Source of the DNA: Pelagibacteraceae bacterium
GTDB lineage: Bacteria > Pseudomonadota > Alphaproteobacteria > HIMB59
DNA length: 64,000 nt
NCBI GenBank assembly: GCA_019651435.1
Contig: BOYI01000001.1
Coordinates: 1-64,000, forward strand
Direction of reading: 5' to 3'
Shown here one piece after another: positions 37,528 to 64,000 of the stretch. The position numbers were made by a program, and so were the translations under genes. The notes below the pieces were generated by a model that saw only the letters and a program-made list of their open reading frames with translations, was not told the DNA's origin and ran no database searches. Position 1 is the stretch's first letter; each line of letters starts with the position of its first letter.

Positions 37528-37560
37528 AATTGGCTCCTTGATATAATTTGATTAATTTTT

Positions 37561-40311: not shown

Positions 40312-40336
40312 GTTCGTGTATATCCTCGCAAAAAAT

Positions 40337-41598: not shown

Positions 41599-41637
41599 AA
41601 AATATGACTAAATCGTGTTTTATCATTATTAATCTAG

Positions 41638-42931
<1,294 letters not shown>

Positions 42932-42933
42932 TT

Positions 42934-44107: not shown

Positions 44108-44549
44108 TTGAGCCTCAGTTTTACTATTAACCAAGAGTCTGAACTTACAGATTTAGTAAGTAAAATATCTCCTCTTTTACAACACCAACAAATACTTTTC
44201 TTTGAGGGTGAAGTTGGATCAGGGAAAACAACATTCATTAGATATTTACTCAAATCTTTAGCCATAAAAGCCAATCAAGATTTTCATTTTTGGGTAGCCC
44301 TACTATCAGCGAGAACATCATTATAATTTAAAAAAACTCAACTTAGTTCATTTTGATTTTTATCAAGTTGACGGAAAAACCCATGTTGATTTAGAAGATT
44401 ATTTTATGAATAACTGTTTATTAATTGAATGGCCTTTAGAAGATTTAAAAAAAAGATATCTTCCTGATGCAATGTTGATTAAGATTAATATAAAAGAACA
44501 AAGTCGTATTATTGAGATAAGTTCACCAAACCCCAAATGGCTTCCCTAA
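44108..44549 (+). CDS. tsaE: tRNA threonylcarbamoyladenosine biosynthesis ATPase TsaE (frameshifts)
   Basis: TTG start directly after metK. P-loop FEGEVGSGKTTFIRYL near residue 33. After about 44275 the frame changes twice; the shifted frames give GSPTISE (the SPT motif), HYNLKKLNLVHFDFYQVDG and LLIEWPLEDL, the TsaE core with Asp/Tyr near the active site, ending at 44549. About 147 residues, normal for the family. TsaE works with TsaB and TsaD in making t6A37. Overlaps amgK by 13 bases. Confidence 0.85.
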
Positions 44550-46503: not shown

Positions 46504-47099
46504 TTATTTTCCAATCTGGACAGTAACTATAAGCATCGATAGTTCTTTTCGATGTAAACTTTTCATTGGAGAGACTTTCCATTTATCTAATTTTTCATAA
46601 TTAGCAATGGCCTCTCCAAAATTATACATTCATATACCCTTCATTAATTGAAAAACTAAAAATAGCATTATTTTTGAGAATGCATGAAGGCATTCACAAA
46701 CCATTAGCTTGCCATGACCATACGTAAAAGTCAACACAAGAGCATGGTCTAATACTTTTCAGAATTGATAAGTGATTGATTTAAATCTGCCCGAAATATT
46801 TTTTGAAAATTGTAGTGTGCAATAAATCAGCATCTCTTGAGAAAAATCAAGTCCCTCAAGATTTGTGATAATCTTGGCTCGTAACCAACGAGTCCAGTAT
46901 CCACAACCAGCACAAGAATGCCGAGTTCTATCTTTGTACATTTTGCAAACAGATGACAACATCTCATGTGGTGCTACATAATTCCATCCTCTAAATCTTT
47001 TTCATATTATTATTAGAGGACCAATTTTTATAGTAGTCAAGATCTCTTCGGAGTATCGAGTTTATAGATTGATATTTTATCTTCAGTCTTTTCAGGCAA
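46504..47099 (-). CDS. Class I SAM-dependent methyltransferase (many frameshifts)
   Basis: No single frame runs through, but the pieces join in order: start MPEKTEDKISIYKLDTP at TTG 47099, then DYYKNWSS, NYVAPHEML, motif I read as LDAGCGTG in mixed frames near 46895-46915, LEGLDFSQEML near 46830-46860, and an ending in YCPDWK near 46510. This is the UbiE-like methyltransferase fold, about 198 residues. Small-molecule substrate unknown. It begins 2 bases after dddP stops, on the same strand, so the two are probably one unit. Heavily damaged by indels, hence the moderate confidence. Confidence 0.6.
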
Positions 47100-47100
47100 G

Positions 47101-48383
47101 CTATGTTAGCTGCTCTAGAGGAAAGGAACTGAGTTGTTCGAGCCATTAGAGGTAACGCGATATTGATCTTCGAGTTTGACGCCTTCTTTTCCTCCTACCT
47201 CACCAATATAGGTCTCGACACAAATGGTCATATTTTCTTCGAAGTGACTTGAAAGTCAGCATTTGAAAAGTCTTCATTAGGATACGCAATCAAAGGCCAT
47301 TCATCACACAATCCAATTCCATGTACCATGCATGGGTAGTGATTATCGTAACAATTATCAGGCAATTTCCATGCTTTTCAGCAAATTCTCTAAAGCTGGT
47401 GCCTGCTTTGATAAGCTCTTTATTATGTTGAATGTGTTCGGTAGCAAGAGAATAAAGTCTTCTTTGTTCATCATTGAATCTACCTCCCTCAACAAATGTT
47501 CGAGAAATATCTGCGCAGTAACCGTAGGTCCTACCATGTCCGTATCAAAGGCAACAAGATCTCCTGGTTCAATAACTCTATTGCTACATTCTTGTAGCCA
47601 AGGATTGGTACGAGGACCAGATACTAATAATCGTGTCTCAAACCACTCGCCACCATTTTCGATGTTGGTTTTATGCATATAAGACCACAATTCTTCTTCA
47701 GTCATTCCAGCTTGAAGCTTGTCTTTCATGAGCCACATTCCCTTTTCTGCAGTTTCAATCGATGCTTTCATACAGACTAATTCATCTTCTGATTTAATAG
47801 AACGGGCAGTTTCTACAAATTTTTGCGCATTTAATAACTCTACATTAAATTGTTTGAGTAGCGTTTGAATACCAACAGGATCCGACACATCAATAGCCAA
47901 ACGATTATTTTCAGGAGAGTGCTCTCTCATTAAATCTTGAACCATGCCCGCCCATTGTTTTGCATTTTTATCGACAAAATTATTTGCAGAAAAGAAATCC
48001 CAACTGACTACACTTCGAATTTCATCAATAGTGCAGAGATGCTCAGATAAATGTTCGCTTTTAGGATAATCAAATAAAATTACTTTACCCCCAGCGCTGA
48101 TAAAAACAAAACGAACTAATTCATGCATTGTAAATAAACTCATGTTCCTACTGTCTGTTGCATAGCGAATATTGATGGGATCAAAAAGTATACAGGCCCC
48201 AACATCATTTTTTTGAAGTTGTTCAATTACTCTATTGAGACGATACATTCTGAGTCGGTCAAAATTAATTTGATCTTCGTATAAATAAGGTTTGAACTGC
48301 TGAGTGCCGGCATTTTGATTGATGACCTCTGAGAATTTAGGCCCAATTTTTCTATTGGCAAATTTACTAGTAAAATTACTCAT
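47101..48383 (-). CDS. dddP: DMSP lyase DddP family (M24 fold; frameshifted C-terminus)
   Basis: About 427 residues when joined. The N-terminal two thirds are intact: LFDPINIRYATDSRNMSLFT, NGGEWFETRLLVSGPRTNPW and VIEPGDLVAFDTDMVGP. From about 47515 the frame shifts; other frames then give YGYCADISRTF (second Asp ligand), MVHGIGLCDEWPLIAYPNED (His ligand), TICVETYIGEVGG (Glu) and GVKLEDQYRVTS (Glu), the full metal-site set. The order and wording match characterised DddP, which cleaves dimethylsulfoniopropionate to DMS and acrylate, better than ordinary Xaa-Pro peptidases. It has its own promoter copy just upstream. Confidence 0.8.
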
Positions 48384-48478: not shown

Positions 48479-49480
48479 CTATTGTGATTGTGTGTTGTAT
48501 TGAGGGTGTTTAGACTCAGGTCGATTCTTGTGTTTAACAACTATTGAGCCATCTACTACCTCTATGTCATAACCCCAATTATCCCATCCATTTAGAGATA
48601 AAGGCTCATTTAATTCATCTTCAAGAGTTCGTGGATACACATAACATCCTTCATTATCTCCATATTGAGATTTGGCTTTCTCCATCTTTTCACTTCCATA
48701 TGTAAATCTAATGGAATTTTTAAATGCTCACCTAATAAATAACATAACTTCATATCTTTACATGCTAAGTCCATTGTGAACCCCGCTTCATATTTTTGAT
48801 TAAAAATATGTGGCACAACAGTTTCCCATGCAAATGAATTACCAGCAGAAACTCTGATGGCATCAAAAAGTTTTCTAAGTCTAAGCCTGCTTTTTTTGCA
48901 ATCATCATACATTCCGAAGCTGCCACCATATTAGTGAAAGCAAGCATGTTAGAAACTACCTTCGCAATCGCACCTGCTCCGATATCTCCACAAAGTACAA
49001 CAACCTCACCAATTGCATCTTGTATTAATTCTTTCCACTCATTAAAAATCTCTTTATTACCTCCTGCTAAACTAACCATATTATTATTTTGCAATGCATG
49101 AACCCCTCCTGTCAAAGTAGCTTCTAACATGGATACATTATTGGTTAATGCTTTTTTCTAATTCTTGAGATTGCTTAAAGTCAGTAGTAGAAGTATCAAT
49201 CCAAACCATTCCTGGCGAGGCATTTTCCAATAACCCTTCTTTTCCTTCAACAGCTTGCAAGACGTGTTCAGGTTTTGGCAAACAAGTTATGGTGGCATGA
49301 CATTTTTGAGCTAACTCTTTAATAGAAGATGCTCTTGTAATATTTTCAGGAAGAAGATTTAGTTTATGTTCATCAATATCATAAGCAATCAATTGATATT
49401 TTTTGTTTTATTTAAATTATTTAAGATTGGTAATCCGGCATTCCCTAAGCCGATTACTCCTATGACTTTGAATTTGTCAT
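48479..49480 (-). CDS. 3-hydroxyisobutyrate dehydrogenase-family oxidoreductase (frameshifts)
   Basis: About 333 residues when joined. N-terminal Rossmann motif VIGVIGLGNAGLPILNNL read across a shift near 49470, then CLPKPEHVLQAVEG, TLTGGVHALQNNNMVSLAGG (the substrate GG motif), GAIAKVVSNMLAFTNM (catalytic Lys region) and FTMDLACKDMKLC. Breaks lie near 49385, 49135, 48880 and 48685. It ends with an extra 40-50 residue tail (LNGWDNWGYDIEVVDGSIVV) not usual in the family. NAD(P)-dependent oxidation of a beta-hydroxyacid is expected; 3-hydroxypropionate or tartronate are possible substrates. Shares its promoter element with dddP. Confidence 0.7.
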
Positions 49481-49621: not shown

Positions 49622-49650
49622 AATCTAATCACGATTTTTTCGAAACGCAA
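49622..49650 (-). promoter_or_regulatory. Predicted promoter of the dehydrogenase unit (copy B of the duplicated element)
   Basis: On the minus strand: -35 TTGCGT (49650-49645), 17-base spacer (49644-49628), -10 TAGATT (49627-49622). The -10 and the adjoining 22 bases match copy A before dddP exactly. Here a leader of about 25 bases with a GGAG ribosome site follows before ATG 49590. Two genes with the same control element point to co-regulation. Confidence 0.6.
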
Positions 49651-49723
49651 AAGATAATCTTTAAATCTAAGTGGTAATTTTTGCCCATTTCGCTAACTTT
49701 ATCGAGGAACTTAGTATTGATAT

Positions 49724-49826
49724 TTATAGTTTTTTGCTCTTTTCTGATATTTGTCCTACATACGTCGCCGCATTCCATAAACCAAGAGAGTTAATTGGTG
49801 AAAATCTTTTTAGAAGTTAAAGACAT
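49724..49826 (-). other. Possible small ORF or gene remnant
   Basis: From ATG 49826 with one frame change, MSLTSK leads to RFSPINSLGLWNAATYVGQI and SEKSKKL, ending at TAA 49724-49726. No family is recognised. It lies between the downstream methyltransferase-like gene and promoter copy B. It may be a true short gene, the end of a lost gene, or chance. The rest of 49660-49875 shows nothing else I can support. Confidence 0.2.
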
Positions 49827-49874
49827 ATTTATAAATGTGTAAATAAAACTGCTTACAGATATTTTAAATAAATT

Positions 49875-50746
49875 TTATTTATTTTGTCCTTTTGACTTCT
49901 TTATAAACTCCTTGGGATCATTGAATTGAAATGGTTTGATTGTAGGAAAGAAAATTTCAGCATTTTTTTGTGAAATCATTTCCAGAGGAATAAACCAAAA
50001 AAACTGACCCTTTAACTCTAGCATTTTTAAAAGAGGCTGAATAATTATCCTCATTGTTCTTTTATATGGAGATCTTAGCCTGAATGCTTGAGAAGCAATG
50101 ATAAAATTATATTTAATTGGGATGTCTTCAATTTTTTTTGAATTAAATGATCAAGTGCAATTTTTTGATCACCTCTATAAATTGCAAGAAGGGTTTTTTT
50201 CTTAGGTATTAATAATGTTGATTTGTTATCTTCTTTTAATTCCCAATTCTTTTTATTAAATTATTCATTCGCATCAACTGTTTGGTAAAATTAAAACTAG
50301 TATTTCCTTCTAACTCTTTTAATAAATTTAATTTTGGGCAAATCTTTATTATTAAAGTCACCATAAGAGGCATTAGTAATACAAAAATTAAGTTTTTATG
50401 TTCAAAAATCTATCGCTAAAAAACTTAATAAGCTTTCTATATCATCAACGCTAATTTCTTTTCCTACGACATAAATCGGATCTTCTGGAAATTGCTCGTG
50501 AGCAGCTGATAGAAGGGTAGATATAATGGTTCCTTCTCCTGTTCCGGCATCAAAAATTCGAAATGCATCTGAGTTAATTCGAGTTTTTTTAAATAAGATG
50601 AGAGTTTAAAAGCAATGCTACTTTTTTCATTTGTGAGAATTAACAAATGATAAATACTTATCTCTTGAGTCAAAAAGTCGGCTTTTTTGTCCCCATTTTC
50701 TTATCCCCTTATGCTTCTTTTTAAACAGAATTTTTAAAAATTCCAT
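49875..50746 (-). CDS. Methyltransferase-like protein with motif I (many frameshifts)
   Basis: From ATG 50746 the start is MEFLKILFKKKHKGIRKWGQ. Motif I appears as FRIFDAGTGEGTIISTLLSA near 50490-50550, then ASYGDFNN, LLIPKKKTLLAIYRGDQKIA, and near the C-terminus FIASQAF-type and QFFWFIPLEMISQKNAEIFF segments, ending KSKGQNK at 49875. About 290 residues joined. The FDAGTGEG glycine-rich loop and later aromatic-rich strands are those of a class I SAM methyltransferase fold. Substrate unknown. Divergent from bhmT with 36 bases between start codons. Confidence 0.5.
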
Positions 50747-50782: not shown

Positions 50783-51819
50783 ATGAATTTAGTTGAAAGA
50801 TTAAATCAAGGACCTGTTTTATGTGCTGAAGGTTATCTCTTTGCTATGGAGCGTAGAGGCTACTTGCAAGCAGGCGCCTATGTACCAGAAGTCGTATTAG
50901 AGCATCCTGAAGTTGTCACTCAATTACACAGAGAATTTATTCGTGCGGGTAGCGACGTCGTGCAAGCTTTCACTTATTATGGTCATCGTGAAAAACTTCG
51001 ATTAATTGGCAAAGAAGAACTCTTAGAACCCTTACAAAAAAATGCTTTAAAAATTGCAAAAGATGCAGCTAATGAATTTCCTGAACTTGATTTAATGATT
51101 GCAGGTAACGTTGCCAATAAAACATTTATAGTCCTACTGATAAACAGTCTCATATTGATTGCCAAAAGATGTTTGCTGAACAAATAGCATGGGCAAAAGA
51201 AGCTGGTGTTGATTTTGTTATAGCAGAAACTATCAGCTGGACTGAAGAAGCTAAACTTGCATTAAAAGAAATAAAAGATGCAGGTTTAATTGCTGTTGTC
51301 AATTTAGCAATTCCAAAAGGAGATAAGACAAGAGAAGGTCATAGCGCTGCAGAAGCTTGTAAAATTTTAGAAGATCATGGTGCAGATGTGGTAGGATTGA
51401 ATTGCTATCGTGGCCCTGATATGACAATGAAATTATTACCTAGCATTAGAGAACAAGTTTCTTGTCATGTAGCGGCTCTTCCTGTTCCTTACCGAACAAA
51501 TGAAGAATTCCCTACTCATATGTATATAGAAGATCCTAACTGTGGATGTCTTGATGGAAATGTTTCTCATATTGCATTAGATGGTCTGACTTGTAATCGA
51601 TTTGAAATGGCTGAATTTACTAAACAATGCATGGATATAAATGTGAACTTTATTGGAATTTGTTGCGGGGCTGACCCACATCATGTCAGAGAAATGGCCG
51701 TTGCAATGGGCAGAAAACCAATCGCTTACAAATACTACCCTGATATGACCAAACACTTTGCTCATGGAAACGAAGGTTCTTTAAAAGATAATAATAAAGC
51801 TGATGAATGGCTTAAATAA
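50783..51819 (+). CDS. bhmT: Betaine-homocysteine S-methyltransferase (one frameshift)
   Basis: About 345 residues joined. N-terminal LNQGPVLCAEGYLFAMERRG; zinc ligands visible as Cys in VVGLNCYRGPDM and the Cys pair in FIGICCGADPHHVREMA, the BHMT/MmuM zinc site. The frame breaks near 51122, restored by NIYSPTDKQSHIDCQKMFAE. It moves a methyl group from glycine betaine (or a related onium compound) to homocysteine, giving methionine. Good GGAGGG ribosome site 8 bases before ATG. First gene of a long plus-strand run, fitting demethylation of a quaternary ammonium compound. Confidence 0.85.
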
Positions 51820-51832
51820 ATTATAATCTGAA

Positions 51833-52979
51833 ATGGAAAAGGTAGACCTACAGCGTTCAACTCACGAAGATCTGTTTATTCCAAAACGTCATCAATTAGA
51901 GGGCTGTACTAATCCTATTCACCAAGCACACGGAATTCCCAACGAATACTATACCCGCTCAGAATGCTTTGAGATGGAGGGAGAACATTTATTTAATAAA
52001 GGATGGTTTGCTGTTGGTTTCGTAAAAGATCTGCCTCAGCCTCCCGTTCTCCCAAAAATTTTTTTAATAACCCTTTTTTTAGTTGTTAAAAGAAAAAAAG
52101 ATGAAAAAAAAATTTGAGTCTTCCAAAATGTTTGTGCATCGTGGAATGATCTTAATTGAAAAGAAGTTTTTAAAAAGGGCCATCCGATGCCCCTATCACT
52201 CTTGGTGTTATAAACAAACTGGTAGGTTGACTCCCAAACTATTGGTGGCCCTGGTTATAATTACCATTCAGGTATTGATAAAATAACCTTTCCTTTTTAA
52301 AATTGATCTCATATTTGGGTGATTTATATTTGTCAATCCTGGATGGAATGGCCCACCTTTTTAAGAAATTATCAACCCTTTTTTAGACTGCTGTTTTTAC
52401 ACCAATGTATTCTGATATGAGCGACTTTCTTTAAATTAGAAGTAAATGGGAAAATGAAATTTGCTGTAGAAAATTATTTAGAGTCTTATCATTTGCCTTG
52501 GGGCATCCTGGGTTGAACAGCTACTCCAAATTAGAAGATCATGAAAACATTGTTATATGGACATTATGGGGCCAAATTTTTCAAGATATTCCCCAGACAC
52601 GACTGGAAAACAATTACAATTTAAAAACTTAGGTCCTGAGTGGGGTACAAAAGGGGAGTATATTGTTTTTTTCCTAACTTTAAACTTTGGATTCAAAAAC
52701 CAATTTTCAACCTTTTTATTGAGCCTTTAGCTCCAAATAAAATTGTGAACACTGAACAATTTTTCAGACCTGCTATGTTAGCAGATGAGTACAAAGAGAC
52801 TCGCCAAGAAAATGCTAAATTATGGAAGACCGTATTCGAAGAGGATATTTTTGTTGTCGAGGAATGCAAAAGGTAGATATGCCAAGGGTTTTGATGGGGG
52901 TCGTTTTTCTCCTGTCATGGATGAACCCACTCATGTATTCCACGATTGGTATGCTCGAAAAATTTTAAACACTCTTTAG
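51833..52979 (+). CDS. Rieske non-heme iron oxygenase alpha subunit 1 (many frameshifts)
   Basis: Pieces in order: MEKVDLQRSTHEDLFIPKRH, NEYYTRSECFEMEGEHLFNK (with FAVGFVKDLPQP), then VCAHRGMILIE-type first Rieske ligands (CxH) near 52130, CPYHSWCYKQTGRL (CxxH), and KFAVENYLESYHLPWGHPGL near 52455-52510, the mononuclear iron site with two His. The C-terminus reads GRFSPVMDEPTHVFHDW. About 380 residues. Related enzymes demethylate glycine betaine, carnitine and proline betaine. It needs an electron-transfer partner, perhaps the reductase at 61861. Densely broken in 52050-52900. Confidence 0.72.
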
Positions 52980-53014
52980 TTACAAATTAATTTAAATAAT
53001 ATTTAATATTACAA

Positions 53015-53824
53015 ATGAATGAATTTCAGGATTGGATTGGAAAGAGTTTTCATCGTGAAGACGTTATTACTGCTCGACTCGTTGATCATTTTCAAAAACT
53101 TTTGATCCTCATTTTGATCAATCTCAAGAAGTCCCTCCTTGTTTTTTTGGTGCCTAGCACCAGACAGTCTTCCCGCAAATCAACTTGGGGCTGATGGTCA
53201 TCCCCAATTAGGTATTTATCTTCCTAATATTCCCTATAAAGGAAGAATGTGGGCTGGTGGTGAAATTCAATTTTAGCAAATTTTCATTTAGGGGACTTGG
53301 TAAAAAACTTCAACAATTAAAGATATTGTTTTTAAATCAGGTAGGTCGGGTAACTTATGCTTTGTCAGTGTAGAACATCTGTATCAAGTAGAGCAAAAAA
53401 TATTATTGAAGAAATTCAAAACATTGTTTACCGAGAAGATACAACTAACAGGGCATCTAGCGAACCTGATGAAATCTTAAATTTATCAGACTCTCAAAAA
53501 TGGACGGTGCATGCAGATAGCACCATGTTATTTCGATATTCTGCCATTACTTTTAATGGACATAAAATTCACTATGACCTTCCCTTTTCTCAAAAATCTG
53601 AGGGCACGAAGGTCTGCTAACTCACGGTCCAATGCAGGCAACGCTCATTGCTAATCGAGCCTTTGCATCTGGATTACCAATAAAATCAATGAAATATCGA
53701 GGATTATCACCTTTAGTTTGCCAAGATCCTTTGATGTTGAGGTAGGAAAAGATCAAGAACGAATTATAGGAAGAGTGATATCTTCAAAAATAAGATTACG
53801 ATGCAAGCAGAGTTTGCAATATGA
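53015..53824 (+). CDS. HTD2-like hydratase (mesaconyl-CoA/FAS1-type dehydratase; frameshifts)
   Basis: About 270 residues joined: MNEFQDWIGKSFHREDVITA start, WCLAPDSLPANQLGADGHPQ, RMWAGGEIQFLANFHLGD, FKSGRSGNLCFVSV, then IVYREDT, TVHADSTMLFRYSAITFNGH with IHYDLPFS, and LLTHGPMQATLIANRAFASG. Double hot-dog MaoC/HTD2 architecture with the D...H catalytic pair in the second half. Family members hydrate mesaconyl-C4-CoA or dehydrate beta-methylmalyl/hydroxyacyl-CoA. The next gene is a CitE-type lyase, so hydration to citramalyl-CoA or malyl-type CoA then cleavage is plausible. Ends by ATGA overlap with citE. Confidence 0.72.
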
Positions 53825-54623
53825 GTGATCAGAATATTATACCTCGACTACCGCTTTTTACCCCCGGTTGTAATATTTCGTTTTTAGATAAAGCTATAGC
53901 TAAAGGGGCGGAGAGCGTCATTGTGGATTTAGAAGATGCCGTGGCGCCTGAAAGAAAAGAGATGGCTAGAGATAACCTTCAAAAATTCAGCATCCAGTCT
54001 TTGTTCGTATTAATGGAGAGAACTCCTCAGAATTTGAAAGTGACTTGAATGCCGTTAAAGACCACCCATTAATTCAAGGTATCATTTTTCCAAAATCAGA
54101 GAGTAAAGCTCAGTTAGATAAAGTTCATGAGTCTACGAACAAGAAAATTATTCCCTTAATTGAAAGCGCCGAAGGTTTAAATCAAGTTCAACAATTAGCT
54201 AAACACCATGCAACGATTACCTTATCACTAGGTCACTTAGATCTGGCTATGTCTCTTCGATGCCAACCTGACTTTGTTTCTCTTCAATATGCTCGATCAC
54301 AAATCGTTCTAGCTTGTGCGCTTGCTAAAATTCCTACACCTATTGATGGGATTACGCAGTCATTTACAAACGTTAATGAAGTTCTTCAAGATTGCCTACG
54401 AGCAAGACAATTAGGTTTTGAGGAAAACTTCTAATTCATCCAGCTCAAATCATTCCCGCTAAACAAGGATTTTGCTCCACTGAAGAAGAATATGAATTTT
54501 CAAAACGAGTTATTGAAATTTCACTAATGTGCCGCTGCTCAAATAGATGGAAAAATGATAGACGCCCCAGTTGTAGAACAAGCTCGAATAATTATTCGAG
54601 ATTACGAGCTAATGAAATCTTAA
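53821..54623 (+). CDS. CitE-like CoA lyase (HpcH/HpaI aldolase family; frameshifts)
   Basis: About 268 residues joined. IPRLPLFTPGCNISFLDKAI, ESVIVDLEDAVAPERK (Asp/Glu near the Mg site), IIPLIESAEGL, LSLGHLDLAMSLRC and, after shifts near 54000 and 54432, LIHPAQIIPAKQGFC and IDGKMIDAPVVEQARIII. The TIM-barrel lyase family includes malyl-CoA, citramalyl-CoA and beta-methylmalyl-CoA lyases. With the HTD2-like hydratase next to it, citramalyl-CoA to acetyl-CoA plus pyruvate is a reasonable guess. It overlaps prpD-like by TAATG. Confidence 0.75.
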
Positions 54624-55920
54624 TGAGCTCAGATTTTTTGACATCTTTTTGTCATTGGGCCTCTCAAGAAAAAATTGAACTTTCCCTGAAATTCTCCTTG
54701 AAGCACGTCTTAGTTACTTAGATACAATTGCTTGTATTGAGGCAGGAAAAATCAAGTAATTTCAACGAAAATTCAAACATTTAACAATCAATACTTTCAT
54801 CACTCTGTGCCAGCTAGTAGGGCGATGCAATATGCCTGCCAAGCTGGGATATTAGATTATGATGACTATGAGTCTGCAGGATCCTCTCATCCTTCCGCTC
54901 CAATAATCTCAGCAATCCTTGCCTTAGCTCCCCAATTAAATCTTCGACTAATTGACATTCTAGAGGCTTGGGTGGTTGGCTATGAAATTATCATTCGAAT
55001 GGGTGAAGCATTAGGATACGGACACTATGAAAAGGTTGGCACGCCACCTCTACTTATGGACCAATTGGTGCGGCTGCTGTAGCACGATTATTAAAGTTAC
55101 CTGCAGATCAATTTGGTCAAGCTTTATCTATAGCCTCAAGTTCTGCTGCGGAATGAAATTACAATTTGGAACTGAAACGAAAAGTTGTCCACGAAGGTCT
55201 TGCAGCTCAAGCTGGAATGCAGGCAGCATATTTAGCCCAACAAGGGATTACATCACAAATTCATTTTTTGATAGCAGAGATGGTTTCAAAGATTTATATG
55301 GTGATCATCAAAGTAAGTGTCTAAATGGTTTGAAAGAAACTATTTTGGGGAGAGCTGTTTTGGACTATCCTGTTATTCGCAAGCCATGGCCATCTTGTGC
55401 ATACACACATCGTATTATTGAGGCTGCAGAAAAAATTCACAATCCATCACTTCAAATGGAAGACATTGATGAAGTCATCATTGAAATCCCAGACCCATGG
55501 ACGAAAGTTGTGAAATTTCAAATACCTAACAATGAGGCTGAAGCTAGATTTTCAGCACCATATTGTGTGATGATGGCGTTACAATCTGGCTCTCTTGGGC
55601 CAGATGATTTTTCTAATCAAATTTATTTAACCGAGGAAAGACAACAATTAACCAAAAGAGCAACTGTACAAGCTTTCAAAGTTGATAGTCAATTTAAGGA
55701 AATGAGCCCTGACTATCCTGATATGGTTTCTGTTAAATTAAAAAATGGCTCAATGATGAAAGAAAGTATTGGCTATGTGAAGGGGGGCCTCCATAACCCC
55801 ATGAGCCTTGAAGACTTGAGAAACAAATTCCAAAAATGTTCAAATAAATCAACATTTTTTGATCAATTTTTAAGCGCACCCATAGAAGCAAAAAGTTCAT
55901 CTCTTCTAGATATTTTTTAG
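54623..55920 (+). CDS. MmgE/PrpD family protein (frameshifts)
   Basis: About 432 residues: start MSSDFLTSFCHWASQEKIEL, then PASRAMQYACQAGILDYDDY, SAGSSHPSAPIISAILALAP, LSIASSSA (shifted), KPWPSCAYTHRIIEAAEKIH and the C-terminal all-beta half (EVIIEIPDPWTKVVKFQIPN; RFSAPYCVMMALQSG). Breaks lie near 54690-54790, 55045 and 55160-55330. The family includes 2-methylcitrate and itaconate/aconitate-type dehydratases and decarboxylases; which reaction is not deducible. In this run it may act on a branched di- or tricarboxylic acid. Confidence 0.75.
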
Positions 55921-56002
55921 GTTTTCCAACAATTAAATTTGATATAGCGTATTGCTGCTTTTGAGGGGGAGAGGGATAAATTTATAAATTCCGTTTAATA
56001 AA

Positions 56003-57090
56003 ATGAAGGTAACTAAATTATCACTTTGGCATGTGGGTCTCACCAGTCATGAGACCTATTATATGGCTGATAATAAAACCTGTGACACGGTTGAGTCGGT
56101 TGTAATTAAAATAGACACAGACACAGGCATCACTGGTTGGGGGGAAACCTGTCCCATCCCTCACTATCTTCCTGCCTACGCTCGAGGAATAGCGCCAGCC
56201 CTCTCTGAACTGGAATCAGTGATAATTGGGAGTGACCCGATTGGAGTGGAGTCATTAATGATTAAAGCTGAAGCTCATTTACCAGGGCATTTGTAGCTAA
56301 ATCTGTTTGATATGGCCTTATGGGATATCACCTCAAAGCATGCGAAATTTCCTTATAAATTTGTGGAGGAAAAAACAAAACGATCTTCCTTTATCACTCC
56401 ATTACATGTATTGCGCCCGATCAAATGGCTTTCTATTGCACGAGAGAAAAAAAAAGGATTAACCCAATTTAATAAACTTGGTGCTGATGCGAATTGGCAA
56501 AATGATGTGGGGCGTCTTGTGAAAGTTAGAGAAGCGGTTGTGAGGACCACTGGTTTATGGGGATTGGAATTGTGGTTCCACTCCTTTAGATGCCATTCGA
56601 ACAAGCCGCGCAGTTAACCATTTAGATATTATGTTAGAGCAACCCTTTTCGTTCTATTTCTGAGTGTGCTTCTGTAAAATCTGCTTCTAACCTTGCAATG
56701 AAATTAGATGAAAGTGTTTACGACATTAAAACATTAATAGAAGGCAATCAAAAAGGAGCTATGGATGTCGCTGCTCTTAAGATATCTAAATTTGGAGGTA
56801 TTACTGCACTTAAAAAGCTAGAGATTTATGTACATATTTTGGGACTAAAATGTGTATCGAAGATACTTTGGGGAAGTGATATCACAACGGCTGCAGTGTT
56901 GCATTTAGGTATTAGTTGCGATCCAAATAGACTACTGAATGTCTGTGATTTATCGAGTTATGTCTCCCCAAGACTAGATGCCAAAATACCCAGTAGAAAC
57001 AATGGAAAGATATCTGCGCCTGAGGGTATTGGCTTAGGTGTTGATCCGGATTTAGACCTACTAGGTCAGCCTGATTTAATTATAGATTAA
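56003..57090 (+). CDS. Mandelate racemase/MLE family enzyme 1, HpbD-like (frameshifts)
   Basis: About 362 residues. Capping domain with GITGWGETCPIPHYLPAYAR; barrel residues: Lys in TQFIKLGAD-like segment, Asp-x-Asn in GDWNCGSTPLDA, Glu in IMLEQPF, Asp-Glu in MKLDESVYD, second Lys in LKISKFGGITALKK, and the end APEGIGLGVDPDLDLLG. Racemase or dehydratase chemistry via two Lys is likely. The WGETCP and terminal GLGVDPD segments resemble 4-hydroxyproline betaine 2-epimerase (HpbD), a match to a betaine operon. Breaks near 56293, 56360, 56460, 56575 and 56820. Substrate not proven. Confidence 0.7.
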
Positions 57091-57149
57091 GTATGAATTT
57101 ATTTCGATTTCATGGTCAAAAATTTTGCTGTAATTTTTAATGGGGATAA

Positions 57150-58235
57150 ATGAGCAATCAGCCAATTTATACGATTGAAAAAAAACATTATATCGATCCT
57201 CATCTATATGAAGAGGAGAAGAAAAAGTAATGATGCGTACGTGGCAGTTTGCAGGTCACGCTTCTCAATTACAAAATACAGGTGACTATTTTACTTTTGA
57301 AATAGCTGGCCAACCTTTATTTTGTATCAAAGACGACAAACAAGAAATTCGATGCTTTTATAATGTTTGCAAGCACCGCGCCCATGAGCTTTTAAAAGGT
57401 TCAGGTAATAGCAAGCGAGCAGCTAATCTAATTATCTGTCCCTATCATGGTTGGGCCTATCATTACGATGGAACCTTCAAGGCAGCACCTAATATAAAGT
57501 TGTACCTAATCTTGATACAAGCAAACTATGCTTAACTGAAGTTCGATTAGAAAACTTTCTAGGATTTCTTTTGTCAATTTAGATAAATCGACAGCACCCA
57601 TGGATGAATGGTTTCCAGAGGTTAGAAAGAATTAGAAGACTTTGTTCCTTTTATTTATCAACTGAAACCTTTGAAGTGGGTAGAAATTCCTGAGTCATGT
57701 AATTGGGAAAATATCTGTTGAAAATTATTCTGAGTGCTACCACTGCAGCATTAATCATAAAACCTTCTCCACCGGAGTAATCAAACCATCGACTTATCGC
57801 ATTTTACCTCAAGGCTATTGTTTGAGACATACCACGGAATGTCAAAATTTAGAAAAAAGACTTATCCCATTGATTTGAATTCAAACCCAAATGCAGGGAA
57901 ATTATTCTTCTTGGTTCCTGTGGCCTCTTTTCTTTTCAAGTCTATCCGGGCAATGTTTTGAACACGTATCATTGGAGAATTATTGATGTTGATCACATTG
58001 TTCTTTGGAGAGGTTGGTACAGTATTGATGGTCAGCCTTCAGAAGTGGTTGAGAAACTCGCCGTTCAGGATCGAGAAACAACTGTGGAAGAGGATATTGG
58101 GTTAGTGGAGTCGGTGCAAAAGGCTTGAAAAGTAACGGTTATGATCAAGGATTCTAGTCGTTGACCCTACGTGTGGTGTTAATTCGAGCACTCCATCCAA
58201 AACTTCAGCAATGGTATAGTGAGTATACTCAGTAA
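57150..58235 (+). CDS. Rieske non-heme iron oxygenase alpha subunit 2 (frameshifts)
   Basis: About 362 residues from ATG 57150. Rieske ligands NVCKHRAHELLKG (CxH) and IICPYHGWAYHYDGTF (CxxH), then ENYSECYHCSINHKTF near 57715-57765, the mononuclear iron site of the choline/glycine betaine monooxygenase-type group. Breaks near 57500, 57655, 57855 and 57925-58170. Ends by TAA 58233-58235, two bases before the aldehyde dehydrogenase ATG. A second N-demethylase or hydroxylase in the same run suggests stepwise removal of methyl groups. Confidence 0.78.
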
Positions 58236-58237
58236 AG

Positions 58238-59665
58238 ATGCAAACTTATCAAAATTATATTAATGGTACATTTGTCGAGGGATATGAGAATATTGAGGTG
58301 CTCAATCCTGCAACAGGTCAGCCATTTGCACTTCAGGCAATAGCCAACAGTCAGCAGGTTGATGATGCCGTTCAAGCTGCTCGAAAATCATTTCTAGAAA
58401 GTAATTTAAAATCTCCGCCCTGTCGAACGTGGTCGTATGGTTCGAAAGATGGGTGAGTATCTTTTATCTAAGGAACAAGAAATAGCAGAATTGTTGACGA
58501 TGGAGGCTGGAAAGCCCCTTTGGGAAGCAAAGTAGAAGTGCAGGGTGCTGCTCGATATTTTGAATATTATGGCAATCAAGCAGAAACAGTTGAAGGCAAA
58601 TCAATCCTTGGGATCCGATTATTATGACTTCACTGTTTATGAACCATATGGTGTTACCGCCCATATCATCCCTTGGAATTATCCTTTAGAGATGACAGCA
58701 CGATCTGTCTCTGCTGCTCTGACGACAGGCAACACGTGTGTTATAAAAACACCAGAACTTGATCCCATTACTAATAGGTATATAGCACTTGCTGCAGAGC
58801 ACGCTGGCCTTCCTCAAGGAATAGTAAATATTATTTGTGGATGGGGACATGAAGCAGGAGATGCACTTACTTCACATCCTGATGTCAATCAAATTGTATT
58901 CACAGGATCAGTTGAGACAGGCATTCAAGTGGCAAGCAATGCTGCAAAAATGTTGTTCCTTGTGTTTTAGAACTGGGAGGAAAGTCAGGCGCGATTGTGT
59001 TGCCAGATGCAGATCAGAAAAATTTAATTGACTCTGTTCGATGGGGAATTTTCTTTGGAGCAGGTCAAGTGTGTTCAGCTATGTCTCGATTGATTGTCCA
59101 TGAAAGTATTCATGACGATGTCTTGGCTCAAGTAGAGGAATTAGCTAAAAAATTAAAACGGGCCCTGGTCAAGATTACCCTACCTTTGGAGATAATATGG
59201 GCGCTATGATCTCAGAGCACCAGCGCGACCGGCAGAAGGCCTATGTCAAAATGCAGTAAATGAGGGAGCAAAAATCCAAACTGGTGGCCATAAGCTTAAT
59301 AATCAAGGGTTTTTCTTAGAACCACTATTATTTCTGATGTCACGCCACAAATGGAGATAGCCCAAACCGAAGTCTTCGGACCTGTACTTTCGGTGATGCG
59401 ATATTCCACTGAAGAGGAAGCTCTCTCCATTATTAACAGTACGGAGTACGGACTCGTTGGCGGTGTTTTTACAAAAGATCTCAATAAAGCTCATCGCTTA
59501 TCTCAAAAAATTCGAGCAGGTCAGATTTTTATTAATGAATGGTTTGCAGGCGGTGTGGAAACCCCATTTGGTGGATTTGGTAAATCAGGGTACGGACGAG
59601 AAAAAGGTCGTGAGGCCTTATGGAATTATGTTCAAACCAAAAACATTGCCTCTAAACTTTCATGA
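58238..59665 (+). CDS. Aldehyde dehydrogenase family protein (frameshifts)
   Basis: About 476 residues: NYINGTFVEGYENIEVLNPA, HIIPWNYPLEMTARSVSAAL (NAD site), IVFTGSVETGIQVA, Glu in LELGGKSGAIVLPD, catalytic Cys in GAGQVCSAMSRL, and EVFGPVLSVMRY with the C-terminal GFGKSGYGREKG. All ALDH elements are present. Frame breaks near 58425, 58530, 58600, 58950, 59160 and 59250-59330. It could oxidise an aldehyde formed by demethylation or ring opening (betaine- or semialdehyde-type). Confidence 0.88.
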
Positions 59666-60757
59666 AGATTACCTCCATTACTGTTTATCAATCTAGTCTC
59701 CTCTAGAGCATCCTTATTGGCTTTCCGGTGGGCGATTAAAATTTGAAGTTCTCGATGCCACATTCTTGAAATTAGAAACTGATGAAGGATTGATCGGTTG
59801 GGGTGAGGGAACTCCTTGGGGACATACCTATGTTCCAGCACATGGTCCAGGCATTCGTGCAGGTATTGAAACAATGGCACCTTTTTTATTGGGACTTAAT
59901 CCTCAAAAGTTTTAGAGGTAGAGCGAGCAATGGACTTATCACTACCTGGTCATTTATATGCCAAGTCTCCCATTGATATGGCCTGTTGGGATATCGCAGG
60001 TCAAGCAGCAGGACTTCCGATTGCAGATTTAATGGTGGGGCTCTCGTGCCCAGCTCCTGTGCCTCTTTCTGTCGGAGCCAAACAGTGGACGAGACTCGAG
60101 AAGTTTTAGCGCGTTACCGCGATCGCGGTTATTGGGTGCACTCTGTCAAAGTCGGTGGTGATGTCGATCAAAATATTGAGCGAATTCAAGATGTGGGAAA
60201 CTCATCGTCCCACTAAAGAACGTATTCTTTATGATGCTAATCCGAGGGTTCACTCGACAACAAGCCTTGCGAGTGATGCAGGAAACCCGGGAGCAATGGA
60301 AGGTGATGTTCGAACAGCCCTGTGAAACACTGATGATATTGCCGCCATCCGTCCTCTCCACTCAGCTCCAGTAAGTGTGGATGAATGCTTAGTGACCTTA
60401 CAAGATGCAACAAGAGTAGCCAGAGACGGAATTGCTGAGGTTTTTGGTATCAAGCTTGAATCGTGTGGGGTCTCACAAAAGCCAGTAGAATCAGGGATAT
60501 TGCCCTTGCACATGGTATCGATATTTTTGTGATGGCCACTGGTGGATCTGTTTTGGCGGATACAGAGGGTTTACATTTAGCAGCCACTATTCCAGATGAT
60601 AATATGCTAGGGGGATGGGCCTGTCAGGATATGATTACAGCAGAGATTGCCGATGGAGCTGGCCCAGAGCAACCAAGGGACATTTTGCATTTACCCGAAC
60701 AGCCAGGTTTTGGGCGTTCATCCTCGAATCAACTTTAACGAAGGTAGCACGATATGA
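59662..60757 (+). CDS. Mandelate racemase/MLE family enzyme 2 (frameshifts)
   Basis: About 365 residues from ATG 59662 (MKITSITVYQSSLPLEHPYW). GLIGWGEGTPWGHTYVPAHG, IDMACWDIAGQAAGLPIADL, Lys in HSVKVGGDVDQN, Asp-x-Asn in ILYDANRGF, Glu in MFEQPCETLDD, Asp-Glu in APVSVDECLVT, second Lys in FGIKLNRVGGLTKASRI. The capping-domain and barrel motifs are those of enolase-superfamily racemases and dehydratases such as hydroxyproline-type enzymes. Breaks near 59697, 59915, 60090, 60200-60240, 60300-60330, 60465 and 60690. Less A+T-rich and more codon-varied than the core genes by eye; transfer is possible. Confidence 0.72.
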
Positions 60758-61825
60758 GTAATACCCCAAAAATTATGAGTGGTGTTTATCTGACGGGTCA
60801 CGGAGGCCTGGATAAATTAGTTTATCGTGAGGATATTCCTGTTCCTATTCCTCAAGCAGGTGAAGTTCTCATCGAAGTAAAAGGGGCTGGCGTTAACAAT
60901 ACTGATATTAATACTCGACTGGGCTGGTATTCAAAAAAAGTAACCAGCGATACTAATGCAGGAGGTTCAGAGGGCTTATCAGAAGTCGATGATGATGACC
61001 CCTCTTGGAGCGGGTTTCCTTCAGTTTCCAAGAATTCAAGGGGAGATATTTGTGGTAGAAGTTCAAGTCGGTGAAGGTGTGGAGCAAGATCGAATAGGTA
61101 CTCGCACATTAGTTCGTTCAATGCAAAACATTCCAACCCTAAAGACAATCCTTTAGCAATGCAAAAAATGGGCTCTGAAGTTGATGGAGGGTTTGCTCAA
61201 TACGTGTAGCTAAAGCAAAGGAGTCTTTTCCAGTTAATTGTGACTGGAGTGATTGAATTGGCATCTATTCCTATTTCCTATTCAACGCGGGAGGGAATGC
61301 TTTGTCGGGGAAAATATTCAAAAGAACTATTTTGATCACTGGCGTTCAGGTGGAGTGGGCTCGTGCTATTCAATTAGCCAAAGTTCGGGGGGCTAAAATT
61401 ATCACTCAGTGTGCACCTGATAAGGCAAGCACTTTAAGAAATTGGGTGCTGATCAAACAGTAAATCGAAATGATGACTTAGTAAAAGTTTTAGGTAAAAT
61501 TCTGTTGAGGGCAGTTTTGATTTGGTGGGTGGATCCAGCTGGCCAAAGTTATTAGATATTCTAAGACCAGGGGGGAAGTATATCACCTCGTTGCCTTGCA
61601 GGCCCAATTGTCGATTTGGATTTAAGAAGCCTTTATTTAAAAGATTTGACTTTATTTGGTTCGACCGTCAATGAACCCTATGTCTTCGAAAATGTTATTC
61701 ATTGTATTGAAGAGGGACAAATTAAACCTTTGGTCGCCCAATCATTTCCTTTAAAAGAGATTCATCAGGCTCAAACAGTGTTTATAGAGAAAAAATTTAT
61801 TGGAAAACTTGTATTAATCCCATAA
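60754..61825 (+). CDS. MDR-type alcohol dehydrogenase/quinone reductase (frameshifts)
   Basis: About 357 residues joined: MSNTPKIMSGVYLTGHGGLD, QAGEVLIEVKGAGVNNTDIN near 35-55, FPRIQG-GDICG-type second segment near 61020-61060, then a shifted Rossmann region (GVG in RSGGVG-like near 61345) and the ending LTLFGSTVNEPYVFENVIHC. Medium-chain reductase pattern. Metal ligands cannot be checked because of indels. It may oxidise an alcohol or reduce a quinone/enoyl product of the pathway. Start overlaps the previous stop (ATGA). Confidence 0.7.
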
Positions 61826-61860
61826 ATCCTGTGAGATAAAATTATTGTATATAATAAGAC

Positions 61861-62893
61861 ATGAGTAATATTGTAGAACCAGGAAATCAGCACGAAACAG
61901 ACGTCGTTATTATAGGCGCCGGACCTTGTGGTTTATTCCAAGTATTTGAATTAGGTCTTTTAGATATGAAGGCCCACTTAATTGATAATTTAGATAAAAT
62001 TGGTGGTCAGTGTGCTGAGCTTTATCCAGATAAAAATCTATACGATATTCCCTCACGCCCTGCCATTACAGGTCAAGAATTAACAGATGATTTGATCACC
62101 CAAGCAGAACCCTTTGGACCCACATATCACCTTAATCAATTAACTGCTAAAATTGATGTCCAAAAAGATCAAATTGAAGTGACGACCAATTTGAACACTA
62201 TCATCAAGTGTAAGTCTTTAGTGATTGCGGCAGGCTCTGGAAGTTTTGTTCCTCGAAAATTACCTGTTTCCAATGTAGAAGAATTTGAAAATAAAAATAT
62301 TTTTTATTCTGTTAAAAAAAGAACAGACTTTGAGGGAAAGAAAATTTTGATTGCTGGTGGTGGCGACTCTGCCTTGGACTACGTGATGGGTTTTCATCAA
62401 ATCGCCTCTGATATTACTTTAATTCATCGTCGAAAAGAATTTAAAGGCGTTCAAGACTCCGTGAACAAAGTAATGAGCTTAGTCGATCAAGGAGAAGTCA
62501 AATTTAATATGGGCACTGTAAAACAAATAGTTGATAATGGTAAAGGCCAAGTGGATATCACCTTAGATGATAACACTGTTATTGATGGAGTTGATGCCAT
62601 CTTCCCTTTCTTTGGATTAAAAATTGAATTAGGGCCAATTGCTGATTGGGGTTTGAACTTAGAAAATAATTTAATCTCGGTGAATACAGAAAACTTTGAA
62701 ACATCTACTCCTCGAATTTTTGCTGTTGGCGATATTTGTACTTATCCTGGTAAGTTAAAATTAATTTTAAGCGGTTTTCATGAAGCGGCACTCGCTGCAA
62801 AGAAAATGTTTCATTATTGCCATAATATAAGAAATATGTTTTTCGTTATACGACTTCCTCTAAAGAATTCAGGAAAAATTAGGCGTAAAATAA
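61861..62893 (+). CDS. Ferredoxin-NADP reductase, thioredoxin reductase-like (frameshifted tail)
   Basis: About 344 residues. FAD site VVIIGAGPCGLFQVFELGL, GGQCAELYPDKNLYDIPSRP, NADP site ILIAGGGDSALDYVMGF, and the CO-like TPRIFAVGDICTYPGKLKLI. Lacks the CxxC redox pair of thioredoxin reductase, as in FNR2-type enzymes. From about 62830 the frame shifts; the correct tail reads KKYVFRYTTSSKEF-KKLGVK and stops at 62893. A likely electron source for the two Rieske oxygenases. Stop lies 1 base from the convergent CDGSH gene. Confidence 0.87.
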
Positions 62894-62894
62894 A

Positions 62895-63135
62895 CTAGTC
62901 TTCAAGCCTATTGTGTGTTCCATCACAAGCGGTTTTTTATTGATGCTTGCATCCACAAAAAAAAACTTTTTGGTTGCTTCAGCAGTGTAAGGAATACAGG
63001 AAAACCCGGGTTTATTTATGAGGAACATCACAAAAAAGGGTTGTTTTGGCTTAATCCACATGCACACCAAAAGTATTTTTGCCCTCTTGACTTCGACAAC
63101 ATAAGATCCTTTTGAGCAATATTGGGTTTTGACAT
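62895..63135 (-). CDS. Tandem CDGSH-type iron-sulfur protein (frameshifts)
   Basis: About 80 residues from ATG 63135, behind GGAGA. Across two or three small shifts it reads RGQKYFWCACGLSQNNPFCD with VPHKNKPGF (first C-x-C-x-C...H motif) and FFFCGCKHQ-KKPLCDGTHNRLED (second motif). Each half has the three Cys and one His that hold a 2Fe-2S cluster, as in mitoNEET-related bacterial proteins. The first motif has DVPH in place of DGSH. Function in redox or Fe-S transfer. Convergent with the reductase gene, one base apart. Confidence 0.7.
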
Positions 63136-63177
63136 AAATTTCTCCTGTTTATCAGTCTTCTTCGCGGGTACAGAATT

Positions 63178-64000
63178 TCAGATCAAATTTATTATTTTTT
63201 GAATGTGTTTTTAAACAGTAGTACGTGAAATATTTAAGGTTTTTGAAACAGCAGTAATTTTACCATCTAATTGATCATATGTTTTCTGAATAAGTAAGCA
63301 TTTTTGTTCTTTTAAAGTTGAGTCGTAACATTCTGAACAAGGTGTGTAAGTAGGAGTTGTATTCTTAGTTTTAGTATTTGGAGCACTAGTTACTTGCTTT
63401 TGAAAAAGTTTCATAAATACACTTGATCCTAGCCAGTCTTTTACTTGAACAATTTTATCTGCATTCATATCATGAGCAACATTTTCAAATGGAGTGGTGA
63501 AGATATTGTAAAAATCTTTTGATTCATCTTTGTACAAACCACTTAACATAATTCTTGTATTTGAGTTAACCCCTTCGATTTGCCCATCTTCGTTTATAGC
63601 AATTAATCCAATACTATTAGTGTGAAGATATTCACTTCGTGGATGAAAGGAATAAATATTAGTGTGTTTAAAATTTTCTAGAAAAACTTTTTGTTCAACA
63701 GACTTTGCTGAAAGTTTAACAAGGGCTAATGTATGATCTTGTCGACTGCTTGTATCAGTTGAAGCATCCAAAACCCCAATAATATTTTGATTGTGATCAA
63801 AGATAGGACTTGCAAAACAAGAAAGACCCCCATGGCTTGTAAAGAAGTGTTCACCTCCAGCAACGATGGTAGGTGATTTTGTTTGTAAGCTTAATCCCAA
63901 ACCATTTGTTCCTCGGTATTTTTCCAACCAAACTGAGCCAGGTATAACTACTTTGCTAGCTTGGCTATTTAAAAATTGATTATCGTAAATGGTATCAAGG
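63178..64000 (-). CDS. AcoR-like transcriptional regulator without AAA+ domain (partial, runs off window)
   Basis: Runs past 64000, so the N-terminus is missing. GAF domain with RGTNGLGLSLQTKSPTIVAG, GEHFFTSHGGLSCFASPIFD and IIGVLDASTDTSSRQDHTL, the AcoR pattern. A PAS-like part follows (IGLIAINEDGQIEGVNSNTR), then a Cys segment CSECYDS and a Fis-type helix-turn-helix (QLDGKITAVSKTLNISRTTV), whose last turn is in a shifted frame ending at TGA 63178-63180. The sigma-54 ATPase domain normally between GAF/PAS and the helix-turn-helix is absent. It probably controls the adjacent catabolic genes by binding a small ligand. Confidence 0.75.

What the first reader, a model, noticed from the sequence alone, without database searches (positions are those of the whole stretch)
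50783..62893. Eleven-gene run for breakdown of a methylated quaternary amine
BHMT, two Rieske oxygenases of the betaine/choline type, two enolase-superfamily racemase/dehydratases (one HpbD-like), hydratase, CitE lyase, PrpD, aldehyde and MDR dehydrogenases and an electron-transfer reductase are packed with overlaps or short gaps on one strand. Together they could demethylate and epimerise a betaine (proline or hydroxyproline betaine is the best guess) and feed the carbon into CoA-linked C4/C5 acids. This exact combination is unfamiliar to me.
Basis: partly seen in the sequence, partly recalled or inferred. Interest (0 to 1): 0.75.

Follow-up and report, generated by a model that had tools for sequence, protein, structure and literature searches.

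The report
Composite betaine-breakdown operon in error-laden assembly
A small-genome ocean bacterium carries eleven neighbouring genes that look like a patchwork of two or three known kinds of pathway for eating nitrogen-containing salt protectants, but the DNA there is full of probable sequencing errors and the exact food molecule is unknown.

Summary
The eleven genes are there, in the stated order, on one strand. But none is one intact frame: 80 frame breaks and 3 stops by my count, against 0 breaks in ten intact control pairs. The damage is patchy, mostly single-base losses, crosses gene borders and recurs elsewhere (lpxD), so I read it as assembly error, not gene decay. The genome is HIMB59-type (name inferred). 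BHMT, Rieske-1, MDR and reductase are genus genes; in two sister genomes they lie with a HpbD-type gene and DAO- and DapA-family genes, a hydroxyproline-betaine-like cluster. Seven genes between Rieske-1 and MDR form a foreign block: three were sought in the genus or order, nothing close found. The block joins two modules seen elsewhere: Rieske-2/ALDH/enolase-type (24 of 33 loci with a close Rieske-2 have enolase-type genes; also on plasmids) and hydratase/CitE/PrpD (C5-dicarboxylate type). Rieske-2 carries the carnitine-type quaternary-amine signature. Best model: C–N cleavage of a carnitine-like betaine, oxidation to a dicarboxylate, CoA-linked splitting. Substrate unproven; proline/hydroxyproline betaine fits the flank better than the block. 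Interesting composite, one instance, modest novelty.

The parts
50783..51819 (+). BHMT-like homocysteine S-methyltransferase (genus-type), read in two frames
   Evidence: PF02574 on the second piece; 98% identical to G009 protein, 1 frame break
51833..52973 (+). Rieske-1 oxygenase (genus-type, divergent allele); motif ENYLESYH at 52469-52492
   Evidence: relatives in G009, G030, G001, G002; 15 breaks, 2 stops; end taken from the alignment
53012..53810 (+). FAS1-type dehydratase-region (MaoC-like) hydratase, start of the foreign block; end approximate
   Evidence: no Pfam hit on its pieces, but 57% identical over 237 codons to L166:9007-9846, which has PF13452
53821..54620 (+). CitE/RipC-like C-C lyase; end approximate
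   Evidence: PF03328 on both pieces; NCBIfam RipC best, below its cut-off; 44% to L166
54623..55920 (+). MmgE/PrpD family protein
   Evidence: PF03972 and PF19305; 55% to SAR324 L046
56003..57090 (+). MR_MLE-1, enolase superfamily; lysine motifs KLGAD 56474-56488 and KISKFGG 56779-56799
   Evidence: PF02746, PF13378; 57% to L054 MLE1; motifs
57150..58226 (+). Rieske-2, group Va type; motif ENYSECYHC at 57720-57746; start approximate
   Evidence: PF00355; 79% to SAR324 L046, 12 breaks; motif
58238..59665 (+). Aldehyde dehydrogenase, betaine-aldehyde-dehydrogenase-like
   Evidence: PF00171; 80% to SAR324 L046, 7 breaks
59662..60735 (+). MR_MLE-2, enolase superfamily, 3EEZ type; lysine motifs SVKVGG 60142-60159 and GIKL 60446-60457; ends approximate
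   Evidence: PF02746/PF13378 below cut-off on pieces; 75% to L054 MLE2
60754..61825 (+). MDR (quinone/acryloyl-CoA reductase-like), genus-type
   Evidence: 89% to G009, 12 breaks; all 19 gap openings of the DNA alignment lie in 61004-61620
61861..62893 (+). Thioredoxin-reductase-like Pyr_redox_2 reductase (FNR), genus-type
   Evidence: PF07992; 98% to G009, 2 breaks; no gap in 61870-62780

Best explanation
This is a composite catabolic operon for a quaternary amine in a HIMB59-type alphaproteobacterium, seen through a poorly corrected stretch of assembly. SHOWN: the genus-type frame is BHMT, Rieske-1, MDR, reductase; between Rieske-1 and MDR sits a seven-gene block (hydratase, CitE, PrpD, MLE-1, Rieske-2, ALDH, MLE-2) that is absent at this spot in G009 and G030, where Rieske-1 and MDR are adjacent. 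INFERRED: the block came in by transfer, together with divergent alleles of Rieske-1 and most of MDR. INFERRED MECHANISM: the reductase or a general ferredoxin system feeds electrons to the Rieske oxygenases; Rieske-2 acts like carnitine monooxygenase, hydroxylating next to the ammonium group of a carnitine-like betaine so that the tertiary amine leaves and an aldehyde remains; ALDH turns this into a dicarboxylate; MLE-1 and MLE-2 take a proton from the carbon next to a carboxylate (epimerisation or elimination); PrpD, of a family whose known substrates are 1,4-dicarboxylates, and the hydratase/CitE pair bring the C4/C5 skeleton through a CoA ester to acetyl-CoA and a 2-oxoacid. BHMT can take a methyl group to methionine. 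A CoA transferase was not seen in the run.
For: Artefact: 0 breaks in ten intact control pairs; in Rieske-1 29 of 33 gap openings are losses in the window and 120 of 185 mismatches still fall on third codon positions; the 19 gap openings of MDR all lie in 61004-61620; FNR none over 911 aligned bases, then 11 openings in 62780-63200 across coding and non-coding DNA; lpxD is broken too. Block: no DNA match beyond one 33-base piece in the held stretches of G009, G030, G001, G002, G017, G019; ALDH in the order 49-59% at best outside this genome; CitE 25% in 3 of 161 other genomes; MLE-1 25-29% in 3 of 51 other genus genomes. Conserved module: of the 80 best loci kept from 281, 33 have a Rieske-2 relative at 50% or more; of these MLE 24, MDR 16, FAD oxidase 25, class III aminotransferase 22, ALDH 11; of the other 47: 1, 1, 3, 1, 0. 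L049, L057 keep Rieske-2, ALDH, MLE, MDR in the window's order. Hydratase next to CitE in L166, L167, L168, PrpD next to them in L166 and L167. Group V marks.
Against: One instance only. Four of the seven block genes (hydratase, PrpD, Rieske-2, MLE-2) were not sought by protein in the order. Rieske-1 lacks the Cys pair. The carnitine enzyme's usual reductase (flavin plus ferredoxin) is not in the run; no CoA transferase. In other genomes the module comes with an oxidase of demethylating type and an aminotransferase, which would fit stepwise N-demethylation rather than amine release. PrpD and CitE were not seen beside Rieske-2 elsewhere except PrpD in 1 of 33 loci. No substrate evidence at all. 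Non-third-position mismatches in Rieske-1 (65 of 185, against 8 of 52 in BHMT) would also fit relaxed selection.
Confidence: 0.5

Rival explanations
1. The frame damage is biological: the whole run is a decaying set of pseudogenes in a streamlining genome.
For: 80 breaks in 11 genes; losses outnumber gains; Rieske-1 has more non-third-position mismatches (65 of 185) than BHMT (8 of 52) or FNR (6 of 41).
Against: Damage starts and stops inside MDR and resumes near the end of FNR into non-coding DNA; lpxD is also split; the mismatched window base equals its own neighbour in 57% (Rieske-1) and 68% (62780-63200), against 35-49% in BHMT, FNR, 36000-46000 and 63210-63970 (the damaged part of MDR shows only 50%, and a 207-base clean piece 5 of 5); block proteins are still 44-80% identical to relatives in other groups.
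Confidence: 0.12
2. The run is a mosaic made by the assembler: the stretch from Rieske-1 to mid-MDR, with the block, comes from another strain or organism than the flanks.
For: Divergence from G009 is 16% in Rieske-1 and 18% in the first 228 bases of MDR, mostly third positions, but 5% in BHMT, 2.4% in the end of MDR and 4.5% in FNR, so alleles switch near 51.83 kb and 61.6 kb; G+C of the block is 0.40 against 0.34 in 1-46 kb (single 2 kb bins there reach 0.40); block genes sought had no close relative in the order.
Against: The same switches are expected from natural recombination. Even then the block lies between HIMB59-type Rieske-1 and MDR genes; a join to an unrelated organism would need two further breaks exactly at those gene borders.
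Confidence: 0.2
3. Hydroxyproline (or proline) betaine catabolism.
For: Sister clusters with a HpbD-type gene (tested for G002), a DAO-family oxidase and a DapA-family gene beside the same BHMT/Rieske-1/MDR/FNR genes.
Against: No HpbD-subgroup gene in the window; DAO and DapA orthologs not found in the genome (best 24% and 35%), which is only 69% complete; Rieske-2 has Tyr, not Asn, at the position said to separate carnitine/choline type (Va) from glycine/proline-betaine type (Vb). Rieske-1 also has Tyr there.
Confidence: 0.2
4. Aromatic-acid degradation by ring-hydroxylating dioxygenases with muconate-type cycloisomerases.
For: Family names only (ring-hydroxylating alpha subunit, MR_MLE); plasmid relatives carry a carboxymuconolactone-decarboxylase-like gene.
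Against: No small (beta) oxygenase subunit or ring-cleavage gene among the eleven; the SAR324 relative of Rieske-2 scores 211 bits to carnitine monooxygenase and at most 97 to other solved enzymes.
Confidence: 0.05

Closest known systems
Carnitine monooxygenase CntA and group Va Rieske oxygenases
   Same: Rieske-2: Tyr at CntA 203, bridging Glu 205, Cys 206/209 pair; CntA is the best solved match of its SAR324 relative
   Different: Partner reductase CntB not in the run; sits with enolase-superfamily genes; substrate unknown
Hydroxyproline-betaine (Hpb) cluster (HpbD and neighbours; function recalled)
   Same: Flank is shared with sister clusters that hold a HpbD-type gene, a DAO-family oxidase and a DapA-family gene
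   Different: Window lacks HpbD and these partners
Itaconate/methylsuccinate degradation cluster (PMC12290011, passages seen)
   Same: A hydratase, a citramalyl-CoA-lyase-like CitE and an MmgE/PrpD protein together
   Different: No CoA transferase or acyl-CoA dehydrogenase in the run; RipC score far below cut-off on the pieces
Cluster with generic names on plasmids of Sulfitobacter SK012, Roseovarius THAF8, Mesorhizobium 131-2-5
   Same: Rieske, ALDH, enolase-type gene; in two of three also an alcohol-dehydrogenase-family gene like MDR
   Different: Those three have a long FAD oxidoreductase, a class III aminotransferase and a MurR/RpiR regulator; none of these is in the run

Membership tests
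Group Va quaternary-amine Rieske oxygenase (Rieske-2) | Aromatic residue at CntA position 203 | tested here: met
   ENYSECYHC, window 57720-57746, aligned to CntA NYMECYHC through L046; rule from PMC7948474 passages
Group Va quaternary-amine Rieske oxygenase (Rieske-2) | Bridging Glu 205 and Cys-X-X-Cys pair 206/209 | tested here: met
   same motif; rules from passages of PMC7948474 and PMC10952381
Group V Rieske oxygenase (Rieske-1) | Aromatic 203, Glu 205, Cys pair (pair described only for some members) | tested here: inconclusive
   ENYLESYHL: Tyr and Glu kept, both Cys absent
Carnitine monooxygenase system | CntB-type flavin/ferredoxin reductase partner | tested here: not met
   only reductase in the run is Pyr_redox_2 with no ferredoxin domain among its Pfam matches; rest of genome not searched for CntB
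Hydroxyproline-betaine epimerase HpbD | Enolase-superfamily gene nearest to the structures recalled as HpbD (4E8G, 2PMQ, 4H2H) | tested here: not met
   L054 relatives: MLE1 277 bits to 4MGG against 196 to 4E8G; MLE2 750 to 3EEZ against 222 to 4E8G; sister G002 gene 522 to 4E8G
Hydroxyproline-betaine pathway | The sister cluster's DAO-family oxidase and DapA-family protein in the genome | tested here: inconclusive
   only 24% (oxidase) and 28-35% (DapA) relatives found, genome 69% complete
cis-3-hydroxy-L-proline dehydratase NF043002 | Curated score 500 | tested here: not met
   326.6 and 329.1 bits for the two L054 relatives
Glycine betaine monooxygenase GbcA NF058607 | Curated score 670 | tested here: not met
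   135.7 (Rieske-2 relative), 104.6 (Rieske-1 relative)
Itaconate/mesaconate-type C5-dicarboxylate module | CoA-ester hydratase plus citramalyl-CoA-lyase-type CitE, with PrpD | tested here: met
   all three present by family; the RipC model reaches only 65.6 of 375 bits on a CitE piece; activity untested
Itaconate/mesaconate-type C5-dicarboxylate module | CoA transferase beside them | tested here: not met
   none among the eleven genes; one follows CitE in L166; rest of genome not searched
Betaine-homocysteine methyltransferase | Homocysteine S-methyltransferase domain | tested here: met
   PF02574 82.9 bits; the betaine-specific NCBIfam model gives 52.5 of 338 on the fragment
Quaternary-amine catabolism | Activity on a betaine | not testable with these tools
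   needs enzyme assay

The most novel reading that the evidence does not exclude
A previously undescribed pathway in which a mobile Rieske-Va/ALDH/double-enolase module cleaves a carnitine-like or hydroxylated betaine and hands the resulting branched dicarboxylate to a hydratase/CitE/PrpD module, assembled inside the hydroxyproline-betaine-type operon of a streamlined ocean bacterium.
Probability: 0.3. Interest if true: 0.62.

Novelty: new variant of a known kind. Interest (0 to 1): 0.42.

Why it matters
Betaines are important nitrogen and carbon compounds in seawater and, to my knowledge, many of their breakdown routes are unassigned. The work gives a concrete, recurring gene set (Rieske-2, ALDH, MLE, MDR, FAD oxidase, aminotransferase), also on plasmids, one of conjugative type, whose substrate can be tested in culturable roseobacters, and suggests how a small-genome lineage may add it to its own operon. 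It also warns that this stretch of the assembly cannot be read gene by gene.

Tried and rejected
Reading the run as intact genes: rejected. Reading it as pseudogenes: considered and set at 0.12. Pfam and NCBIfam on the hydratase pieces gave nothing; solved only through intact relatives. C4:1-6000 looked damaged by ORF cover, but the pieces look to me like antisense of ribosomal RNA genes (my reading; no RNA search was run), so I do not count that stretch. Papers: no paper in the held library has all four terms mandelate racemase, Rieske, betaine, catabolism; the listings (2 of 2; 12 of 30; 10 of 14) show no title on this cluster; passages of PMC10130141 gave nothing on it. The HIMB59 paper PMC10308909 holds none of betaine, BHMT, DddP, hydroxyproline, Rieske, mandelate (term search). 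Passages of PMC11366302 report genomic potential for glycine-betaine catabolism in this group; its enolase mention is only a reference title. Passages of PMC12478193 discuss SAR11-type BHMT, not HIMB59. My searches did not list the original HpbD and stachydrine papers; what I say of them is recalled.
Full report
WHAT IS THERE. The window is the start of contig 1 of a 1.353 Mb, 7-contig genome, listed as 69% complete. The one single-contig genome among the same-genus genomes has 1,410,127 bases, the size I recall for strain HIMB59; I use that name as an inference. The eleven genes of the finding are present in order on the + strand.

THE DAMAGE. Long ORFs cover 62-100% of each 2 kb bin in 1-46 kb, but 0-84% in 46-64 kb. 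A frame-tolerant alignment to intact relatives counts 80 breaks and 3 stops over the eleven genes; the same method gives 0 breaks in ten intact pairs and in two clean window genes. Against the close genome G009, Rieske-1 has 33 gap openings in 1133 aligned bases, 29 of them losses in the window; yet 120 of 185 mismatches are at third codon positions. The 10 kb stretch 36000-46000 has 10 gap openings. All 19 gap openings of MDR lie in 61004-61620; the reductase has 0 over 911 bases; then 11 follow in 62780-63200. The mismatched window base equals its own neighbour in 57% (Rieske-1) and 68% (62780-63200), against 44% in 36000-46000 and 35-49% in three other clean pieces; the damaged part of MDR (50%) and DddP (36%) do not show this, and one 207-base clean piece has 5 of 5. 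lpxD on contig 3 is also split over two frames. I conclude assembly error in thinly covered stretches; the cause is not shown.

GENUS-TYPE FRAME. In G009 the order is DddP (other strand), BHMT, Rieske-1, MDR, reductase, with 33 bases between the Rieske-1 and MDR frames. In G030 two BHMT genes, and genes that resemble the oxidase, DapA-family and ALDH genes of G001, lie at 465.9-471.9 kb, and Rieske-1, MDR, reductase at 484-488 kb. In G001 and G002 BHMT (in G002 cut by the contig end), a DAO-family oxidase, a DapA-family protein (in G001 also an ALDH), an enolase-superfamily gene, Rieske-1, MDR and reductase run together. The G002 enolase gene matches the structures that I recall as HpbD with 515-522 bits, the next group with 211. 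So the flank belongs to a hydroxyproline-betaine-like cluster. Relatives of the BHMT piece were found in 39 of 60 genomes, this one included, some of them weak.

A DIVERGENT SEGMENT. Rieske-1 and the first 228 aligned bases of MDR differ from G009 by 16% and 18%, mostly at third codon positions (120 of 185, 33 of 41), while BHMT (5.1%), the end of MDR (2.4%) and the reductase (4.5%) are close. So the block sits in a segment, about 51.83-61.6 kb, that is a different allele from its flanks: either natural recombination or an assembly path through another strain.

THE FOREIGN BLOCK. The seven genes between Rieske-1 and MDR have no DNA match, beyond one piece of 33 bases, in the held stretches of six genus genomes. 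Three were sought by protein: MLE-1 in 3 of 51 other genus genomes, at 25-29%; CitE in 3 of 161 other order genomes, 25%; ALDH in 75 of 161, but only 49-59% identical. A scan of genome contigs with a Rieske-2 piece found 281 relatives and kept the best 80; the best is a SAR324 genome with PrpD, Rieske-2 and ALDH in a row, 55, 79 and 80% identical to the window genes. Of the 80, 33 hold a Rieske-2 relative at 50% or more over 120 residues; 24 of these 33 have an MLE gene, 16 MDR, 25 the FAD/GcvT oxidase, 22 the class III aminotransferase, 11 ALDH, 1 PrpD, 0 CitE, 0 BHMT; among the other 47 the counts are 1, 1, 3, 1, 0, 0, 0, 0. Some loci are cut by contig ends. L049 and L057 have Rieske-2, ALDH, MLE, MDR in the window's order. 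Related clusters are on plasmids of Sulfitobacter (typed conjugative), Roseovarius and Mesorhizobium, with generic names. Elsewhere in the class CitE was found, at 41% or less, in 9 of 384 other genomes; hydratase and CitE are neighbours in L166, L167 and L168, PrpD is next to them in L166 and L167; a class III CoA transferase follows in L166 by Pfam, and ORFs that begin alike follow in L167 and L168.

FUNCTION. Passages of PMC7948474 and PMC10952381 give Tyr/Phe 203 as the mark of group Va (carnitine, choline, benzalkonium), Asn for group Vb (glycine and proline betaine), a bridging Glu 205 and, in some, a Cys pair. Rieske-2 has Tyr, Glu and both Cys in the window's own DNA (57720-57746); its SAR324 relative matches carnitine monooxygenase with 211 bits, others with at most 97. 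Rieske-1 has the Tyr and Glu only. Both enolase genes keep two lysine motifs (their role is recalled), but their L054 relatives lie outside the HpbD group. Passages of PMC12290011 say that known MmgE/PrpD substrates share a 1,4-dicarboxylate core and describe a hydratase, citramalyl-CoA lyase and MmgE/PrpD in one cluster. Joining these gives the model stated; each enzyme step is inference.

JUDGEMENT. My searches of the held library listed no paper on this cluster.

Noticed in passing
47104-48383 (-): DMSP lyase DddP-like gene, 95% identical to G009, 4 frame breaks; next to BHMT on the other strand in G009 and G030, one gene away in G001.
   Followed up: partly
48479-49407 (-): Hydroxyisobutyrate/tartronate-semialdehyde-reductase-like gene in pieces, between DddP and the next gene; no such gene there in G009.
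   Followed up: no
49636-50694 (-): Relative (67%, 13 breaks) of a 370-residue protein in G001 with no Pfam match, beside DddP and BHMT; absent from this spot in G009.
   Followed up: no
46514-47102: Stretch with no counterpart between thioredoxin and DddP in G009; broken minus-strand pieces.
   Followed up: no
51830-61620: Segment 16-18% divergent from G009 inside flanks 2-5% divergent: allele switch at both ends.
   Followed up: partly
L134:2782-3341 (C3 of the same genome): lpxD split over two frames; the first 8 kb of this contig has no ORF of 150 codons.
   Followed up: partly
L182, L183, L184: Rieske/ALDH/enolase/FAD-oxidoreductase/aminotransferase cluster with MurR/RpiR regulator on plasmids of Sulfitobacter, Mesorhizobium and Roseovarius, generic annotation.
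   Followed up: partly
G030:C1:465916-468041 (L012 end and L013:1-2042): Two tandem BHMT-like genes in the HIMB59-like genome; the second is 73% identical to the G009 protein.
   Followed up: no
L019:453-3092 and L140:3220-5867: Zn alcohol dehydrogenase and an ABC solute-binding protein follow the reductase and a regulator downstream of the run.
   Followed up: no
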